Below, piece after piece: positions 12,501-56,449 of a stretch of DNA of 64,000 nt. Within the stretch, counting starts at the first letter, position 1; the number at the start of each line of letters is the position of its first letter. Origin of the DNA: Limnephilus marmoratus (taxonomy: Eukaryota; Arthropoda; Insecta; Trichoptera; Limnephilidae); NCBI GenBank assembly GCA_917880885.1, contig OU862913.1, positions 44,983,460-45,047,459 on the forward strand, given 5' to 3'. A program made the position numbers and the translations under genes. The notes under the pieces were generated by a model that worked only from the letters and a program-made list of their open reading frames with translations, had not been told where the DNA came from and ran no database searches.

Positions 12501-12900
12501 TTTAAAAAAAATATATATATATTCGAGTAACTTGCTTATCCCATTTAAATGTGTTATCTACTTTTAACCCCAGGTAAGTATAAGTATACTCCTTGACAAA
12601 GTCTATTTTTTCACATTGGCAATTTATTGTTATTTTCCTATGAATGCATTCAAGGTTGTGTGCGGTTAAATTCGGAATATTCCATATTTTCAATCTTGGT
12701 GATCTGATATCCATGCATTTTGTTTTTTTTTTTTTTACATTTATAACTAATCCTACATCATGTGCCCATTTTAGCAGTTCATCGAAGTCGGTTTGTAATT
12801 TTTGAATCGCTATTTGTGGATTTTCATTTGATGCTATAAGTGCGGTGTCATCTGCGAAAATGAATCTACGCGCTTTTCGAAATAGTTTCGACATAGCTAT
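12501..12900 (-). pseudogene. LINE reverse transcriptase palm fragment
   Basis: The minus-strand 130-residue frame starts near FRKARRFIFADDTALIAS, where FADD is reverse-transcriptase motif C (two catalytic aspartates). It continues LQTDFDELLKWAHDVGLVIN and YTYLGLKVDNTFKWDKQV. It breaks off before the thumb. It resembles the LINE at 38648-40005 in layout, including the ..CxC.. segment before YTYLGL. Confidence 0.8.
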
Positions 12901-13117
12901 AACATAATTATTTTATGTAAGTATTTAATATATTTTTACAAAGATCATTTACAAAAAGTCCCAAGATTGAATCTCGCAAAAGAATGCCGAAATTTGAGAT
13001 TAAGAAGGATTTTGCTGATATTTGAATACACTGTCTTGAGATAATTTGAATTATAATCATATATATTTTTTAACAAATAAATCAAAATATTCCCTCTATT
13101 TTGTTTTTTATTAAAAA

Positions 13118-24869: not shown

Positions 24870-24997
24870 CTTTTTACTTCCCAGAACTTCTTCTCCTTCC
24901 TTGCCTAAAAAGACCCCCACACAGCATCTCCAAAGATTGCATAGGCTCTGACGGAAATTGTTTTTATCAGGGTCTCCTGTGTGGAGCTAATGTAAAA
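24870..24997 (+). mobile_element. REP-H 3' part
   Basis: TACTTTTTACTTCCCAGAAC, CACACAGCATCTCCAAAG, a degraded hairpin, CTCCTGTGTGGAGCTAATG and an A-run are present. Confidence 0.8.
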
Positions 24998-25002
24998 AAA
25001 TG

Positions 25003-25085
25003 CCCCGTTGATGAACACTGCAAAGCTGTCCAAAACGTTGGTCAAAGAAGAAAAAGCGCAACACGGCACAAAACCCCGATAATAC
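25003..25085 (+). mobile_element. Decayed half-copy of the palindromic hammerhead-like unit
   Basis: GTTGATGAACACTGCAAAGC, TGTCCAAAACGTTGGTCAAAG and CGCAACACGGCACAAAACCCC align with the loop and right arm of the unit at 53594-53785. The left arm is absent. Two core positions differ (C to T before TGATGA, G to A in GAAAC). Confidence 0.6.
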
Positions 25086-25305
25086 ATCACAATGGAAAAT
25101 ATATTAGAATTTTTATGACATTTAAATAACTGAATAAAGCGGGTAAATAAGTTATGTATGAATAAATGGGTTCATTTGAGGATGTATGTAGGTTGGATGT
25201 CCATACATAATTATCTATAACTATTATAATAGTGAAGGTTCGGGTTGTCACCAATACACTCAGCTAGATAAAGTACTGGAAAATGCATAACCTCGTATGT
25301 AGGTA

Positions 25306-36884: not shown

Positions 36885-38100
36885 TTAGGTCCTTACATAT
36901 GAAATTGGCGTTTTGCCTTACTGGCAACTTTGATCTCAAATATCTTCTCTTTGGTTAGGAATTCCAAATTCAAATTTATACAGCTATTTACTCATCTATT
37001 TGTGTTTCGAAAATTATAATTCATTTGTTTTTTTCCTTAATTGTTTTTTTTCTTTGCGTCCCTTAGTTTACAAAATGGAAAACTTGAAATACCGCGTTAT
37101 TTACGAGTACGAGTTCCACTGTGGCACCAGTGCTGCAGAAACGGCTCGAAGGATCAATGATGTGTATGTCGACGGTGCCGCAAAAGAAAACACAGTGCGT
37201 TTTTGGTTCCAACGTTTTCGTTCTGGAAATTTCGACCTGCAGAACAAGCCCCGTAGACGGCCGGAGACCAAAGTTGATAATGAAGAATTGAAGGCTATTG
37301 AGGAAACGAATCCATCGCAAACCACGTCCGAGTTAGCTGCAGGCTGCGGTGTTAGTGATCAACAGATAAATCAACAAACGCGCGTTGACTGCTGCGTTGC
37401 ATTACTCAACCGGCACAATAATGAAGGGATTTTAAATCGAATCATTACCTGTGATGAAAAGTGGATCCTGTACGATAATCGGAAGTGCTCATCGCAATGA
37501 CTGAACCCTGCCGAACCAGCCAAACCATGCCCCAAGCGAAAATTGACTCCAAAAAAGTTACTCGTGAGCGTTTGGTGGACTAGTGCTGGTGTCGTTCACT
37601 ACAGCTTTCTTAAATCTGGCAAGACGTTTACGGCAGATGTCTATTGTCAGCAACTGCAAATTATGATGGAAAAGCTAGCTGCTAAACAACCAAGGCTGGT
37701 TAATCGCTCTAGGCCACTGCTGCTTCATGACAATGCTAGACCACACACTGCACAACAGACGGCAACTTAAATTAGAGGAGATTCGATTGGAATGTCTAAG
37801 ACATCCACCGTACTCTCTGGACCTTGTCCCAACAGATTACCATTTTTTTCGAAATTTGGATAACTTCCTCAAGGGAAAAAATTCAAATCCGATGGGGCAG
37901 TCCAAACCGCCTTCAAAGATTTTATTGATTCCCGTCCGAATGGTTTTTTTAGTAAAGGGATCGATGAACTACCTATGAGATGGCAAAAGTGCACAGATAG
38001 CAATGGTACATACTTTGATTAAATAAATATATTATATTAAAAAAAAATCGACTTTATGTTCTTCCCATACAAAACGTCAATTTCATATGTAAGGACCTAA
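36885..38100 (+). mobile_element. mariner element, cecropia-like (copy A)
   Basis: TA-flanked; the ends TTAGGTCCTTACATATGAAA (left, plus) and the same sequence reversed at the right are perfect over at least 25 bp. Length 1216 bp. A second copy in opposite orientation is at 55164-56449. Confidence 0.9.
37075..38020 (+). pseudogene. mariner DD34D transposase, inactivated (copy A)
   Basis: MENLKYRVIYEYEFHCGTSA opens the frame. An HTH region with WFQRFRSGNFDLQNK follows, then a ~28-residue deletion between GCGVSD and QQINQQTR (present in copy B). ITCDEKWILYDNR carries the first catalytic aspartate. A stop follows at 37498 (copy B has tryptophan there), then KKLLVSVWWTSAGVVHYSF and LLLHDNARPHTA (second aspartate). 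After a frameshift, SLDLVPTDYHFFRNLDNF carries the third aspartate, 34 residues on. All three catalytic residues survive, but the stop, deletion and shift prevent activity. It resembles the cecropia/SETMAR-type mariners. Confidence 0.9.
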
Positions 38101-38414: not shown

Positions 38415-40497
38415 CCTAGATAAAGAATAGCACAACTCGAAATAATCCAAAATCGAGTTATTACCATTTTCGGAATCTGCGTCAAACACTACACAAACCT
38501 CAAAGACACCTGTTTAAAAATCTCCATCAATAAAATTGTAGATGGCACTAGTCAGTCTTTCTGAATTGCTCTACGAAAACCCCCACCAACAATAGTAACG
38601 CATCACCAGTTACGACATACCAGCTGTAGGGGAAGGTGCTGTCACTACGTTTTTTTTTTTTTTTTTTTTTTTAAATATGTTTATTTAGTTATTAATTATA
38701 CAATAATTTCTCTTACTTAAATCTTACAAAACTGATCAATCAGTTTGATTGTAAGAAATCTCTCATTTTTCCTGTTTATTCACTTACAACATATAAAATG
38801 TTTGATATTTTGGTGCTTAATACATATCTAGTAATTATTTAATAATATAATACTTAATATTAAAATACTTAACTAATTATTATAATGCTTATTACCTATA
38901 TATACCTATTCGATCAAAATAATATTTGTTTTTCATAGATTTAGGTATTTTTATACAATATTTTAGTTTTCATATTCTATTGAAGTAGAGAGTAGTACTA
39001 ACTTTAGTTTTGATTTTTGAATATGATGTCTCGTTTTTAATATTTTCATTAAATATTTGCGGAATTTTATGCCTTTTTGTTCTATCACCGTATACATTTT
39101 GAGATTTATTAATAATAAACATTTCTGCTTCTCTATGCCTAGTTAGTTATGGTTAACAGGTTTTTTGAATTCTGTATTCCAGAATTCATCTAGAGTTAAT
39201 TGGTAATCTACCCTACTATGTATAGAGAGCACATTACACAAGGAGAACATTTTTTTATAATCGCCATCACATAATTGAACTTTTTTTTTTTGCCTGATAT
39301 CAATTTTAGGAAACGGATTTGTATTTGTTCTATTTTATTTAAGTATGTTTTGTAGGTTAATCCGTAACTATTTATTCCGTATCCTGTAATTGATTCTGCT
39401 AATGCGTTATATATACAGTATAATATATTTTTATTAACAAAGTTTTTTAGGTGATAAAATTTCCCTAATATGGATCTTAATCTATTACATACATTTTCAA
39501 TATGAATTGACCAGTTAAAATTGACATCTATTGTAAGACCAAGGTATGTATATTGGTACACTTTTTCTATGTTTGGGCAATTACACTGCAGGGATTGGTT
39601 TTTTGTGTGTAAGCAATCATATGAATGACTTTTAATGTGCAATTCCTTATCCTGACAGTTTGCATGTGGTGAATGTATAAGCATGTATATGTTTTTTTTT
39701 GCATTGATAATTATGCCATTGTCGTGGGACCATTTAATTATATTATTTAGGTCTGTTTGTAAAATTTCCTGAATTTTTTGTGGATTTTTGTCAGAACATA
39801 TGATGCAAGTATCGTCTGCAAACATGTAGCATTTACAACGTTTTATTATGTTTGGTAAACTGTTTACTTGCATAATATAACACGTAGGTCCCGATATCGA
39901 TCCCGTAGCTACCCCAGTGTTTGCCAACATTTCATCACTTAAAATTCCGTCAATTTTAACTTTAATTTTTCTATTAAGCAAATAATTTTAAAAAAAATTA
40001 TTTAAAGGACCTCTAATACCACATTCCTCCATTGTACAAAGACTGGATTATTTCAACTTAGTCTTGTATTCGTGATTAACCGCAGTCATAGTGCGTGAAT
40101 ATTTTGAGTTGATTTGGCATTCGTGATTGAACTTGTCTTGTTTCTCGGGCGTTCTACATATCAATTCCACTTACTCAGGTATTTTGAAGATTATAAAACA
40201 AAATATACAGAATAAGAGTGCATTAATTCAAAATTTATCACTAACATGGAATCAATTTGAGTTGATAACATTATTAAACAATGATTTTGCACAAATACTA
40301 AAATAACATGAAATTAATTAATAAACGCATGACGCGTGATTTTGATGGTTAAGTAATTAAACAAATAAATATCCTAGTAAAATAACATACAATATCATAT
40401 AACAATATTTTTAATCGGTCCAATAGAAATCGAGTAAAACGTTTTTCGCTGTTCCTGAAAAAAGAGGTATTTTGAGTTGTGCTCTTCTTTATCTAGG
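38415..40497. mobile_element. TIR element containing a LINE insertion
   Basis: CCTAGATAAAGAATAGCACA at 38415 and, reversed, CCTAGATAAAGAAGAGCACA at 40497 (about 30 bp, 3 mismatches) bracket 2.1 kb. Most of it is the LINE at 38648-40005. Without it the element would be about 0.7 kb. No transposase was seen, and the target duplication is unclear. Confidence 0.6.
38648..40005 (-). pseudogene. 5'-truncated LINE with reverse-transcriptase palm and poly(A)
   Basis: The minus-strand 257-residue frame (39981-39208) contains GVATGSISGP (motif B; the usual form is GVPQGS-x-x-GP), YMFADDTCIIC (motif C with both catalytic aspartates), YTYLGLTIDVNFNWSIHI and YCIYNALAESITGYGINSYG. Further C-terminal residues continue in a shifted frame (MFIINKSQNVYGDRTKRHKI, IPQIFNENIK). 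A run of about 25 T at 38650 is its poly(A) tail. Upstream RT motifs and the endonuclease are absent. It is the best-preserved RT in the window but not functional. Confidence 0.85.
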
Positions 40498-48589: not shown

Positions 48590-49190
48590 GTACTATGTCC
48601 AGGCATGGCGAGAGAGTCTCAAGCTTGTGCTGGCGATTTTGTACATCATCCTGCTGCTGGTCAATATGTTGCTCATTGCTCAATTATGTTGGTGTTTTGT
48701 ATTGCAGGCATGGCAGTTGGAGGGCGGCTGCAGGCATGGCGAGAGAGTCGCAAGCTGTTGCCGGCGATCGTGACCATTATCCAGTTTCTGGTCAATATGT
48801 TGCTCGTTGCTCATGGGTGTTTTGTGTTGCAGGCATGGCAGTTGGAGGGCGGCTGCAGGCATGGCGAGAGAGTCGCAAGCTGGTGCTGGCGATCGTGACC
48901 GTTATCCTGTTTCTGGTCAATATGTTGCTCGTTGCTCATGTGTATTTTGTGTTGCAGGCATGGCAGTTGGAGGGCGGCTGCAGGCATGGCGAGAGAGTCG
49001 CAAGCTGGTGCTGGCGATCGTGACCATTATCCAGTTTCTGGTCAATATGTTGCTCGTTGCTCATGGGTGTTTTGTGTTGCAGGCATGGCAGTTGGAGGGC
49101 GGCTGCAGGCATGGCGAGAGAGTCGCAAGCTGGTGCTGGCGATTGTGGCCATCGCCCTGCTGCTGGACAATATGTTGCTCACCACTGTCG
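48590..49190 (+). repeat. 125-bp tandem array built from a Vmat-like exon
   Basis: Units start after ..TTGTGTTGCAG at 48708, 48833, 48958 and 49083, exactly 125 bp apart, and are preceded by a diverged unit at about 48590. Each encodes AWRESRKLVLAIV.. and an NMLL hydrophobic stretch. Because 125 is not a multiple of 3, the same protein segment appears in successive frames, which produces several long overlapping open frames that are not separate genes. Units 1-3 differ by few bases from each other. Confidence 0.9.
49085..49190 (+). CDS. Vmat: Exon of SLC18-type vesicular amine transporter (Vmat-like), TM1
   Basis: In the last array unit an ATG at 49085 opens MAVGGRLQAWRESRKLVLAI, then VAIALLLDNMLLTTV, ending in G of a phase-1 junction before GTAAGC at 49191. 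A TTTTGTGTTGCAG acceptor-like tract precedes it. The RKL-basic cluster followed by IALLLDNMLLT matches the cytosolic N-terminus and first transmembrane helix of vesicular monoamine transporters. These proton antiporters load dopamine, serotonin, octopamine and similar amines into synaptic vesicles. The aspartate equals the TM1 Asp (Asp33 in mammalian VMAT2) needed for substrate recognition; VAChT has DNMLYM instead. The expected next exon (..VPIIP) is not in the window, because a mariner starts 34 bp downstream and the intron runs off. The start could also be an internal methionine of a longer exon. Confidence 0.6.
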
Positions 49191-53213: not shown

Positions 53214-53435
53214 AAGACAATATTAGCGAAACTCAATCGAAAATCTGGAGACAGAAAAATCAGAAAAGACATTGGCTCCACTGGGACTCGAACCCAGGAC
53301 CCTTTGCTTACATGGCAAGAGCTCTACCGATTGAGCTACTGAACCCATATCAATTCGGTCACTTATATTTCGACTAAGAACTACCGTCATTATCTTCATT
53401 TTTGGCATCATTGGCTGCTATCTTTATATATGATT
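53214..53435 (-). mobile_element. SINE-A with well-preserved tRNA head
   Basis: Minus strand: GGGTTCAGTAGCTCAATCGG through GGGTTCGAGTCCCAGTGGAG and CCA. The D stem (GCTC/GAGC) and T stem (CTGGG/CCCAG) pair fully and the acceptor stem at 6 of 7. The anticodon loop CATGTAA lacks the universal T33, so it is a SINE head and not a tRNA gene. About 90 bp of unrelated sequence precede the tRNA part and are shared with the 1075 copy. Confidence 0.8.
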
Positions 53436-53593
53436 GCAAGATTCAACTCGAACTAAATGCAATCTAGATAGTATCTGGATAAAATTTTTATCCATTTTAT
53501 TTTTAATACGCGACATCTATTGACTTTTTTGCAAGTCTAGGATGAATATTAATAATTAATAACTTGTAAATCACTTTTCAATCAAATCTTTCA

Positions 53594-53785
53594 GTTCTGT
53601 TGTTTGTTTTTGGGGTGTTATGCCGTGTTACGCTACCTCCTCCTTTAGGAGAGACACATCTGCCCTGATGATGGACACTGTAACGCTGTCCGAAACGTTG
53701 GCTAAAGGAGGAGGTAGCGTAACACGGCATAACACCCCAAAAACAAACAACAAAAATACTTTTGGCCGTGAAAATCTAAAATCAT
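53594..53785 (+). mobile_element. 192-bp palindromic mobile unit with 13-bp target duplication
   Basis: ATCAAATCTTTCA at 53581-53593 and 53786-53798 flanks the unit. Inside are perfect 51-bp inverted arms (53598-53648 and 53702-53752) around a 53-base loop, then a 33-base 3' tail. There is no protein motif. A decayed half-copy is at 25003-25085, so it is a dispersed element. Confidence 0.75.
53649..53712 (+). ncRNA. Hammerhead-ribozyme-like motif
   Basis: The loop contains CTGATGA (53665-53671), a 5-bp stem II (GGACA/TGTCC, 53673-53677 and 53687-53691) and GAAAC (53692-53696), the hammerhead core in the right order. The outer arms would form stem I: CC before CTGATGA pairs with GG after GAAACGTT, then an internal loop, then the long arms. 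Stem III would be only the self-complementary ACGT, as in dimer-active hammerheads of Penelope-like elements and satellites. One extra T between CTGATGA and stem II departs from the consensus. Activity is unproven. Confidence 0.4.
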
Positions 53786-54000
53786 ATCAAATCTTTCATT
53801 TGTTAACCACATAACGGAAATCTCTAATGAGGATTAACAAATTTTAAGATTTATAACCAGGCTAACTTGAAATTTCGACAAATTAAGTGTACCTATAATA
53901 TTTTATATTTTGCCTACGTTAGAAGTCAACATGAATACAATTCTCCCATCTGGAACCCACATTATAATACTCATGTACAAGTTGTTGAAAGAATCTTACT

Positions 54001-55163: not shown

Positions 55164-56449
55164 TTAGGTCCTTACATATGAAATTGGCGTTTGGTATGGG
55201 AGGAACATAAAGTCGATTTTTTTTTAATATAATATATATATATTTACTCAAAGTATGTACCATTGCTATCTATGCACTTTTGCCGTCTCATAGGTAGTTC
55301 ATCGATCCCTTTACTAAAAAAACGATTCGGACGGGAATCAATAAAATCTTTGAAGGCGGTTTGGACTGCCCCATCGGAGTTGAATTTTTTCCCTTGCAAG
55401 AAGTTATCCGAATTTAGAAAAACATGATAATCTATTGGGGAAAGGTCCGGAGACTACGGTGGATGTCTTAGACATTCCAATTGAAGCTCCTATAATTTGG
55501 TGGCCGTCTGTTGTGCAGTGTGTGGTTTAGCGTTGTCATGAAGCAGCAGTGGCCTAAAGTGATTAACCAGCCTCGGTTGTTTAGCAGCTAGCTTTTCCAT
55601 CATGGTTTGCAGTTGCTGACAATAGACATCTGCCGTAATCGTCTGGCCAGATTTAAGAAAGCTGTATACACGAACGACACCAGCACTACTCCACCAAACG
55701 CTCAAAAGTAACTTTTTTGGAATCAATTTTCGCTTGGGGCATGGTTTGGCTGGTTCGGCAGGGTTCAGCCATTGCGATGAGCCCTTCCGATTATCGTACA
55801 GGATCCACTTTTCATCACAGTTAATGATTCGATTTAAAATCCCTTCATTATTGTGCCGGTTGAGTAATGCAACGCAGCAGTCAACGAGCGTTTGTTGATT
55901 TGCTTCACTCAATTCGTGAGGTACCCACCTTTCAAAAATTTTCACCTTCCCAATTTGCTTCAAGTGTATTAAAACAGTTTTATCACTAACACCGCAGCCC
56001 GCAGCTAACTCGGACGTGGTTTGTGATGGATCCGCTTCCACAATAGCTTTCAATTCTTCATGATCAACTTTGGTCTCCGGCCGTCCACGGAGCTTATTCT
56101 GCGGGTCGAAATTTCCAGAACGAAAACGTTGGAAGCAAAAACGCACTGTGTTTTCTTTTGCGGCACCGTCGCCATACACATCATTAATCCTTCGAGCCGT
56201 TTCTGCAGCACTGGTGCTACGGTGGAACTCGTACTCGTAAATAACGCGATATTTCAAGTTTTCCATTTTGTAAACTAAGTGAGGCAAATAAAAAACCAAT
56301 TAGGGAAAAAACAAACGAATTATAATTTTCGTAACAAAAATACATGAGTAAATAGCTGTATAAATTTGAATTACGAATTCTCAACCAAAGAGAAGATATT
56401 TGAGATCAAAGTTGCACGGCAAAATGCCAATTTCATATGTAAGGACAAA
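55164..56449 (-). mobile_element. mariner element, cecropia-like (copy B)
   Basis: Left end TTAGGTCCTTACATATGAAA after TA. The right end has the reversed repeat with a small deletion (AAGGACAAA). 1286 bp, opposite orientation to copy A. The sequence on both sides joins into one repeat (AACCGGAAATA/TATGTCATTTT), confirming TA-duplicating insertion. Confidence 0.9.
55202..56268 (-). pseudogene. mariner DD34D transposase, near complete with stops (copy B)
   Basis: The main frame runs from MENLKYRVIYEYEFHRSTSA to HTAQQTATKL (stop at 55490). It includes the HTH region that copy A lost (VLIHLKQIGKVK..WVPHELSE), INCDEKWILYDNRKGSSQWL (first Asp) and LLLHDNAKPHTA (second Asp). After the stop, ELQLECLRHPP, another stop, SPDLSPIDYHVF (third Asp, 34 residues from the second) and QTAFKDFIDSRP..GIDELPMRRQKCIDSNGTYFE complete the protein, with no frameshift evident. 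About two stop codons separate it from a full-length frame. It differs from copy A at many sites. Confidence 0.9.

What the first reader, a model, noticed from the sequence alone, without database searches (positions are those of the whole stretch)
53581..53798. A 192-bp palindromic mobile unit with a hammerhead-like ribozyme in its loop
Seen: perfect 13-bp direct repeats flank a unit with perfect 51-bp inverted arms. The loop holds CTGATGA, a 5-bp stem II and GAAAC in hammerhead order, and the arms are placed to serve as stem I. Known: Penelope-like retroelements, retrozymes and some satellites encode hammerheads with a minimal, self-complementary stem III. Inference: this could be a very small non-autonomous retroelement that processes its own RNA. 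The extra T before stem II is a real departure, and the half-copy at 25003 has lost core bases.
Basis: partly seen in the sequence, partly recalled or inferred. Interest (0 to 1): 0.8.

Follow-up and report, generated by a model that had tools for sequence, protein, structure and literature searches.

The report
Stub of a Penelope-type retrotransposon
The small hairpin-shaped insert is the copied front end of a common, much larger Penelope-type jumping gene in this genome, with a short back-to-front copy added during insertion; it is not a new ribozyme-powered mini-element, but its many sister inserts record how such elements integrate.

Summary
The anatomy is real: 51-bp perfect inverted arms, 13-bp flanking direct repeats, hammerhead core boxes in order. 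The reading as a self-contained palindromic mobile unit fails. From the ATG inside CTGATGATG the right half encodes residues 1-41 of a Penelope-like element (PLE) protein whose uninterrupted ORF was fetched from the same genome (88% identity; reverse transcriptase, GIY-YIG; closest named relative Anolis carolinensis, 46%). The unit ends where PLE reverse transcription starts (+115 to +118 of the ORF) and carries the 28-31-nt PLE "tail" on one side only. In a 40-copy sample, 27 have an inverted left copy; its outer end lies at the tailless start site (x=99-106) in 21 of 27, and its inner end varies. So arms are made anew at each insertion. Flank repeats of at least 8 bp occur in 20 of 27. The hammerhead resembles the published minimal PLE type, and the extra T is also in the uninterrupted element. 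In three of five units folded, the arms pair over the cut site. Of 28 fetched close copies, 24 are one insertion carried inside another amplified repeat. Verdict: new member of a known kind, useful mainly as a natural record of PLE integration.

The parts
53581..53593 (.). left target-site repeat (10-13 bp after allowing for overlap with the element end)
53595..53648 (-). inverted left copy of the PLE leader: starts at the tailless RT start site (x about 99-102), stops at x=49; 51 of 51 complementary to the right arm from 53598
53649..53653 (.). 5-nt junction filler GAGAG, differing between the five independent units of the first search
53654..53788 (+). direct copy of PLE leader, x=1 (inferred RNA 5' end, ACACATCTG) to x=132-135 (tailed RT start site)
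   Evidence: 100% to L032, a natural copy with longer upstream pLTR
53662..53702 (+). minimal hammerhead motif: GCC/GGC stem I, CTGATGA, extra T, stem II GGACA/TGTCC, GAAAC, GTT; predicted cut between 53699 and 53700
   Evidence: same motif in L105
53668..53787 (+). start of the PLE ORF (ATG 53668 or 53671), matching residues 1-41 of P0001
   Evidence: tblastn 88%, E=2e-15; start aligned with the Anolis protein
53758..53788 (+). PLE tail: segment between the tailless (x=104) and tailed (x=132-135) RT start sites, absent from the inverted arm
   Evidence: tail defined in PMC11167929 and PMC3846280
53786..53798 (.). right target-site repeat; first 3 bases overlap the element end
24990..25099 (+). 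older decayed copy of the same kind of PLE leader, core bases lost
   Evidence: 74% DNA identity to the L105 leader

Best explanation
It is a leader-only (stub) insertion of an autonomous Penelope-like element of the GIY-YIG type that is abundant in this genome. PLE RNA starting at ACACATCTG (x=1) was bound by the PLE protein. The protein cut both strands of the target, and reverse transcription began inside the RNA, about 115-118 nt into the ORF on one side (tailed) and about 30 nt earlier on the other (tailless). On the right side the cDNA ran to the RNA 5' end. On the left side it stopped after about 50 nt. The two cDNAs were joined head-to-head with a few filler bases, giving the hairpin and the target-site repeat. 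The hammerhead is simply part of the PLE leader. Shown by sequence: identity with the PLE leader and ORF, the two end classes, variable arms, target-site repeats. Inferred: RNA 5' end at x=1, two-sided priming, end joining.
For: Source-type element in the same genome (L105): uninterrupted ORF (823 residues translated, P0001) starting at the hammerhead ATG, RVT_1 E=9e-12, GIY-YIG E=0.0019 (18.9 bits, below the gathering score of 22.6), the end of another ORF and a pLTR upstream, and a second pLTR downstream whose hammerhead was seen as far as GAAA, where the fetched stretch ends. Residues 1-41 match window 53668-53787 at 88%. The second-best of 905 proteins (7992 candidates scored, 120 listed), and the best with a name, is an Anolis carolinensis protein, 46% over 99%: the species of the biochemically studied PLE, PAc (PMC11167929, abstract and main text read, methods not: RT starts 111-118 nt into the ORF, both strands cut and extended, tail = sequence between two RT start sites). 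In the 40-copy sample (analysis): inverted left copy in 27 of 40; outer end x=99-106 in 21 of 27, tailed in 0 of 27; inner ends of the 19 adjacent arms range from x=85 to -49, 8 of 19 at x=0-2; direct copies start at x=0-2 in 9 of 40; flank repeats of 8 bp or more in 20 of 27, against 2% of 4000 random pairs. A. vaga PLEs show the same layout: adjacent shorter inverted pLTR, 31-bp tail, 9-bp TSD (PMC3846280, passages).
Against: The sample is the 40 best of 855 first-look candidates for the window's own arm plus tail, so every direct copy has a tail by design and units lacking a tail on both sides are not represented. 13 of 40 have no inverted copy starting within 700 nt (9 of these 13 reach at least 20 nt further upstream, so their left ends were mostly not determined), and 7 of 27 units with one have no flank repeat of 8 bp. 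Six of 27 outer ends lie outside x=99-106. L028, outside that sample, is tailed on both sides. PMC11167929 reports no apparent difference of RT start site between the two DNA strands in vitro, which does not predict the asymmetry seen here. No RNA data support x=1 as the RNA 5' end. Pfam found nothing in the two C-terminal fragments tried first, and only weak RT matches exist among solved structures.
Confidence: 0.93

Rival explanations
1. A distinct, very small non-autonomous palindromic retroelement (retrozyme-like) that uses its hammerhead to process its own RNA and borrows PLE enzymes.
For: Compact unit with hammerhead boxes and target-site repeats; 40 scored copies at 92-100% identity.
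Against: 24 of 28 fetched copies are one insertion inside another repeat. Independent units have different arm lengths and junctions, so the palindrome is not inherited as a unit. No tandem array of the unit was found in the window. Arms that include CCAA pair over the cut site: the hammerhead fold costs 14.6, 19.2 and 16.0 kcal/mol in three units, 3.7 in the window copy, 5.0 in L002.
Confidence: 0.03
2. A DNA-transposon foldback or MITE with long terminal inverted repeats.
For: Long inverted arms and flanking direct repeats; Mos1-type transposase fragments in the window.
Against: The inverted repeats are not at fixed ends: one side carries a 28-31-nt tail, the inner ends vary, flank repeats vary from 8 to 17 bp where found, and the sequence is the start of a PLE ORF.
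Confidence: 0.01
3. PLE-derived, but the arms arise by fold-back self-priming of a single cDNA, or by antisense-template priming, rather than by two-sided priming at the target.
For: PMC3846280 (passages) proposes self-priming on an antisense template because palindromes sit at the inverted junction.
Against: Simple fold-back would not place the left outer end at a fixed internal start site about 30 nt short of the right end; 21 of 27 do. Junctions have filler or overlap of varied length.
Confidence: 0.15

Closest known systems
PAc, Poseidon-clade Penelope-like element of Anolis carolinensis (PMC11167929)
   Same: ORF starts at hammerhead stem II; RT starts 111-118 nt into the ORF (here 115-118 from ATG 53671); tail between two RT start sites; protein 46% identical over 99% to the Anolis protein found here (identity of that protein with PAc itself is inferred, not tested)
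   Different: The window copy is only the leader with an inverted fragment; a consistent tailed/tailless asymmetry of ends is seen in the sample here, while no apparent strand difference in RT start was reported for PAc in vitro
Pen2a_Av and relatives, Adineta vaga Penelope elements (PMC3846280, passages)
   Same: adjacent inverted, shorter pLTR, optional 31-bp tail on one of the inverted pLTRs, short target-site duplication, palindromes at head-to-head junctions
   Different: There the layout frames whole or truncated elements with larger pLTRs, and the solo pLTRs mentioned had no TSD; here the insert is a leader-only stub with an arm and a TSD
Metazoan non-LTR retrozymes (PMC7229834, abstract and passages)
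   Same: small size and a type I-like hammerhead
   Different: Retrozymes occur as tandem repeats with canonical hammerheads and are expressed as circular RNAs; no tandem array or canonical hammerhead is seen here, and RNA could not be tested

Membership tests
Penelope-like elements (GIY-YIG type) | ORF with reverse transcriptase and C-terminal GIY-YIG endonuclease in the source element | tested here: met
   L105, 823 residues translated: RVT_1 above cut-off; GIY-YIG E=0.0019, below gathering score but with GVYKL..VYVGQT motifs. The window stub itself carries only residues 1-41
Penelope-like elements (GIY-YIG type) | pseudo-LTRs / partial tandem arrangement | tested here: met
   L105 holds the end of one ORF, a pLTR, a full ORF and the start of the next pLTR
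Penelope-like elements (GIY-YIG type) | minimal hammerhead at the pLTR/ORF start | tested here: met
   same boxes in the upstream pLTR of L105 and in the window; in the downstream pLTR seen as far as GAAA; activity not tested
Penelope-like elements (GIY-YIG type) | optional 30-40-nt tail and internal RT start site | tested here: met
   direct copies end x=130-135 (tail required by the query), inverted copies x=99-106 in 21 of 27
Penelope-like elements (GIY-YIG type) | inverted pLTR fragment and short variable target-site duplication | tested here: met
   27 of 40 with inverted copy; 20 of these 27 with flank repeat of 8 bp or more
Metazoan retrozymes | tandem units bounded by canonical type I hammerheads | tested here: not met
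   single unit with no tandem array at the locus; motif lacks stem III
Metazoan retrozymes | circular RNA | not testable with these tools
   no RNA data
Hammerhead ribozyme (as RNA family) | significant covariance-model match | tested here: not met
   no Rfam hammerhead hit at the window locus nor in the L105 leader
Hammerhead ribozyme (as RNA family) | core boxes in order | tested here: met
   extra T between CTGATGA and stem II
Hammerhead ribozyme (as RNA family) | self-cleavage | not testable with these tools
   needs in-vitro assay; 2 of 40 copies start within about 1 nt of the predicted cut (L090, L096)

The most novel reading that the evidence does not exclude
PLE integration is intrinsically two-sided and asymmetric: one target end uses the tailed RT start site and the other the tailless one, each copying a leader RNA toward its 5' end. 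Occasionally the template is the hammerhead-cleaved RNA, giving inserts that begin at the cut (L090, possibly L096). The hundreds of leader copies in this genome would then be a readable archive of single PLE integration events and of hammerhead use in vivo.
Probability: 0.3. Interest if true: 0.55.

Novelty: new member of a known kind. Interest (0 to 1): 0.3.

Why it matters
It removes a tempting false positive (a ribozyme mini-element) and shows what such hairpins are. The same family supplies many independent stubs whose two ends can be read base by base, which makes unresolved PLE integration steps (two-sided priming, second-strand synthesis, role of the hammerhead) testable from genome sequence.

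Tried and rejected
Palindromic ribozyme element: rejected for variable arms. MITE/foldback: rejected. Rfam as arbiter: uninformative, since the L105 leader is also missed; the mir-3910, mir-6579 and mir-2068 hits are below their gathering scores and reflect the long hairpin (my reading). Similarity in phage records: none. PLE relatives in viral contigs: 19 pattern hits, none confirmed. Pfam on two C-terminal fragments: nothing. First constrained folds did not apply the constraints and were redone; there L002's stem II, which has one mismatch, was forced. One search counted inverted arms adjacent to the direct copy only (21 of 40); one search counts any starting within 700 nt upstream (27 of 40), of which 19 adjacent by its rule. 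Counting copies that end at the hammerhead cut by nested patterns: one count obtained (339 exact copies of the 34-mer from x=47, reversed control 0); the neighbouring counts did not complete, so enrichment at the cut stays untested genome-wide. Covariation of stem II was not tested: copies are too similar, and DNA of distant PLE leaders was not obtained. L101-L104 were fetched but not examined. Rows dropped: in the pooled count the 24 carried copies are represented by L003 alone, and L031 (the window again) is left out; repeats of one locus were merged.

Full report
Observation. The hairpin is far beyond chance (z -14.2). The hammerhead-like order is unusual (1 hit over 60 shuffled windows by a loose pattern designed after seeing the motif, 2 in the window), but no Rfam hammerhead model supports it.

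Copies. The window lies in a genome of 1.63 Gb, which I take to be a eukaryote. The whole unit had 1595 first-look candidates, of which the 40 best were scored. I fetched 28 of those 40. 24 of the 28 share both flanks: they are one old insertion carried by another amplified repeat. The independent ones are the window copy, L002, L009, L028 and the founder of the carried set. Their five arm/loop junctions all differ.

What the right half is. From ATG 53668 (or 53671) the frame is open through the unit (one search aligns it without a stop to residues 1-41). Searching with the right half alone (847 candidates, 40 scored, 30 fetched) showed copies with a longer upstream sequence not present in the window and, upstream of that in L051, L053 and L055 among the 17 loci looked at, the C-terminus of a GIY-YIG-like protein (recognised by eye, no Pfam match in two such fragments). 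That C-terminus has 6724 first-look candidates (150 scored), with open frames up to 862 aa. One was fetched (L105): an uninterrupted ORF beginning at the hammerhead ATG, with the end of another ORF and a pLTR before it and the start of a second pLTR after it, whose hammerhead is seen as far as GAAA, where the stretch ends. The 823 residues translated hold RVT_1 and GIY-YIG (GIY-YIG below the gathering score). Residues 1-41 match window 53668-53787 at 88%, and the left arm in reverse. 905 relatives passed the cut among 7992 scored, 120 were listed; the best with a name is from Anolis carolinensis at 46% identity, aligned from our second methionine. So the unit is the front end of a Penelope-like element.

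Where it ends. In PAc, the studied PLE of the same lizard, RT starts 111-118 nt into the ORF, a tail lies between two start sites, both DNA strands are cut and extended, and the ORF begins at hammerhead stem II (PMC11167929, abstract and main text read). Here the unit ends at +115 to +118 from ATG 53671. I set x = window position minus 53653. A sample chosen only by arm plus tail (855 candidates, 40 scored; all 40 fetched) was measured. An inverted left copy starting within 700 nt upstream is present in 27 of 40. Its outer end is at x=99-106 in 21 of 27 (mode 104; the other six at 89, 94, 97, 109, 110, 112) and in 0 of 27 tailed. The inner end of the 19 adjacent arms is spread from x=85 to x=-49, with 8 of 19 at x=0-2. 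Direct copies start at x=0-2 in 9 of 40, further upstream in 12 of 40, and between x=3 and 47 in the remaining 19. Flank repeats of at least 8 bp occur in 20 of 27 with an inverted copy, 2 of 13 without, and 2% of 4000 random pairs. Pooling what I fetched, with the carried set counted once, gave 61 distinct insertions, 41 with inverted copies, 31 of 41 with outer ends at 99-106, and 2 tailed (L028; L048, a distant and doubtful match). The query demanded a tail, so units that lack the tail on both sides are not seen.

Mechanism. The fixed outer sites and variable inner ends are what two-sided priming predicts: each cut DNA end starts its own cDNA inside the RNA, one at the tailed and one at the tailless site, and the two cDNAs meet and are joined, often when one has run off the RNA 5' end at x=1. 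The window unit has a complete right cDNA (x=1 to 132-135), a left cDNA of about 50 nt and a 5-nt filler. The RNA 5' end, the two-sided priming and the joining are inferences. Self-priming has been proposed for head-to-head PLE palindromes (PMC3846280, passages) and is kept as a rival.

Hammerhead. PLE hammerheads are described as minimal, lacking helix III, and possibly cleaving as dimers (PMC7761336 and PMC6155905, passages; the primary papers by Cervera 2014 and Lunse 2017 were not held). The extra T occurs in L105 too. Forcing the hammerhead fold costs 3.7 kcal/mol in the window copy, 5.0 in L002 (whose stem II has one mismatch), 2.2 in the right half alone, and 14.6-19.2 in the three units whose arms extend over the cut site (nearest-neighbour energies ignore the catalytic core). 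So the palindrome does not look like a ribozyme design. Two of 40 copies begin about at the predicted cut: L090 at x=47, or 48 if the last base of its 13-bp flank repeat is not counted as element, and L096 at x=46-48, where its arm overlaps by 2 nt. This is a hint of hammerhead-cut templates, no more; PMC11167929 found no RNA reads beginning or ending at the PAc cut. A genome-wide test was not completed (only the x=47 count of 339 was returned).

Known or new. The layout matches published PLE anatomy (inverted shorter pLTR, one-sided tail, short TSD); solo pLTRs without TSD are also mentioned in PMC3846280 (passages). My paper searches listed no paper whose listing or passages, as far as I read them, describes leader-only palindromic stubs, but most subscription papers are not in that library and I read few of those listed. 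I file it as a new member of a known kind.

Noticed in passing
L003 and 23 other loci with shared flanks (L004-L008, L010-L027): One old stub insertion sits inside another repeat that has since been amplified: 24 fetched copies share both flanks. The carrier repeat was not identified.
   Followed up: partly
L090; L096: Two copies start about at the predicted hammerhead cut (x=47-48, and x=46-48); L090 has no inverted arm and a 13-bp flank repeat.
   Followed up: partly
L028: A stub tailed on both sides; its palindrome seems to extend a few bases into the flanks.
   Followed up: no
G000:C25:685799-691676, C16:5719411-5724872 and similar pairs: PLE ORF ends often come in pairs a few kb apart, one on each strand, in line with large inverted PLE copies.
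   Followed up: no
window 55490-56299 (-) and 36934-37500 (+): Mos1/mariner-type transposase fragments (HTH_48 in both, Transposase_1 in the first).
   Followed up: partly
window 39208-39987 (-) and 12502-12912 (-): Reverse transcriptase remnants (RVT_1; the second below cut-off).
   Followed up: no
window 48600-49180: 125-bp tandem repeat, 4.6 copies, with long open frames in more than one frame.
   Followed up: no
window 53273-53345 (-): tRNA gene-like match (50 bits) about 240 bp upstream of the insert.
   Followed up: no
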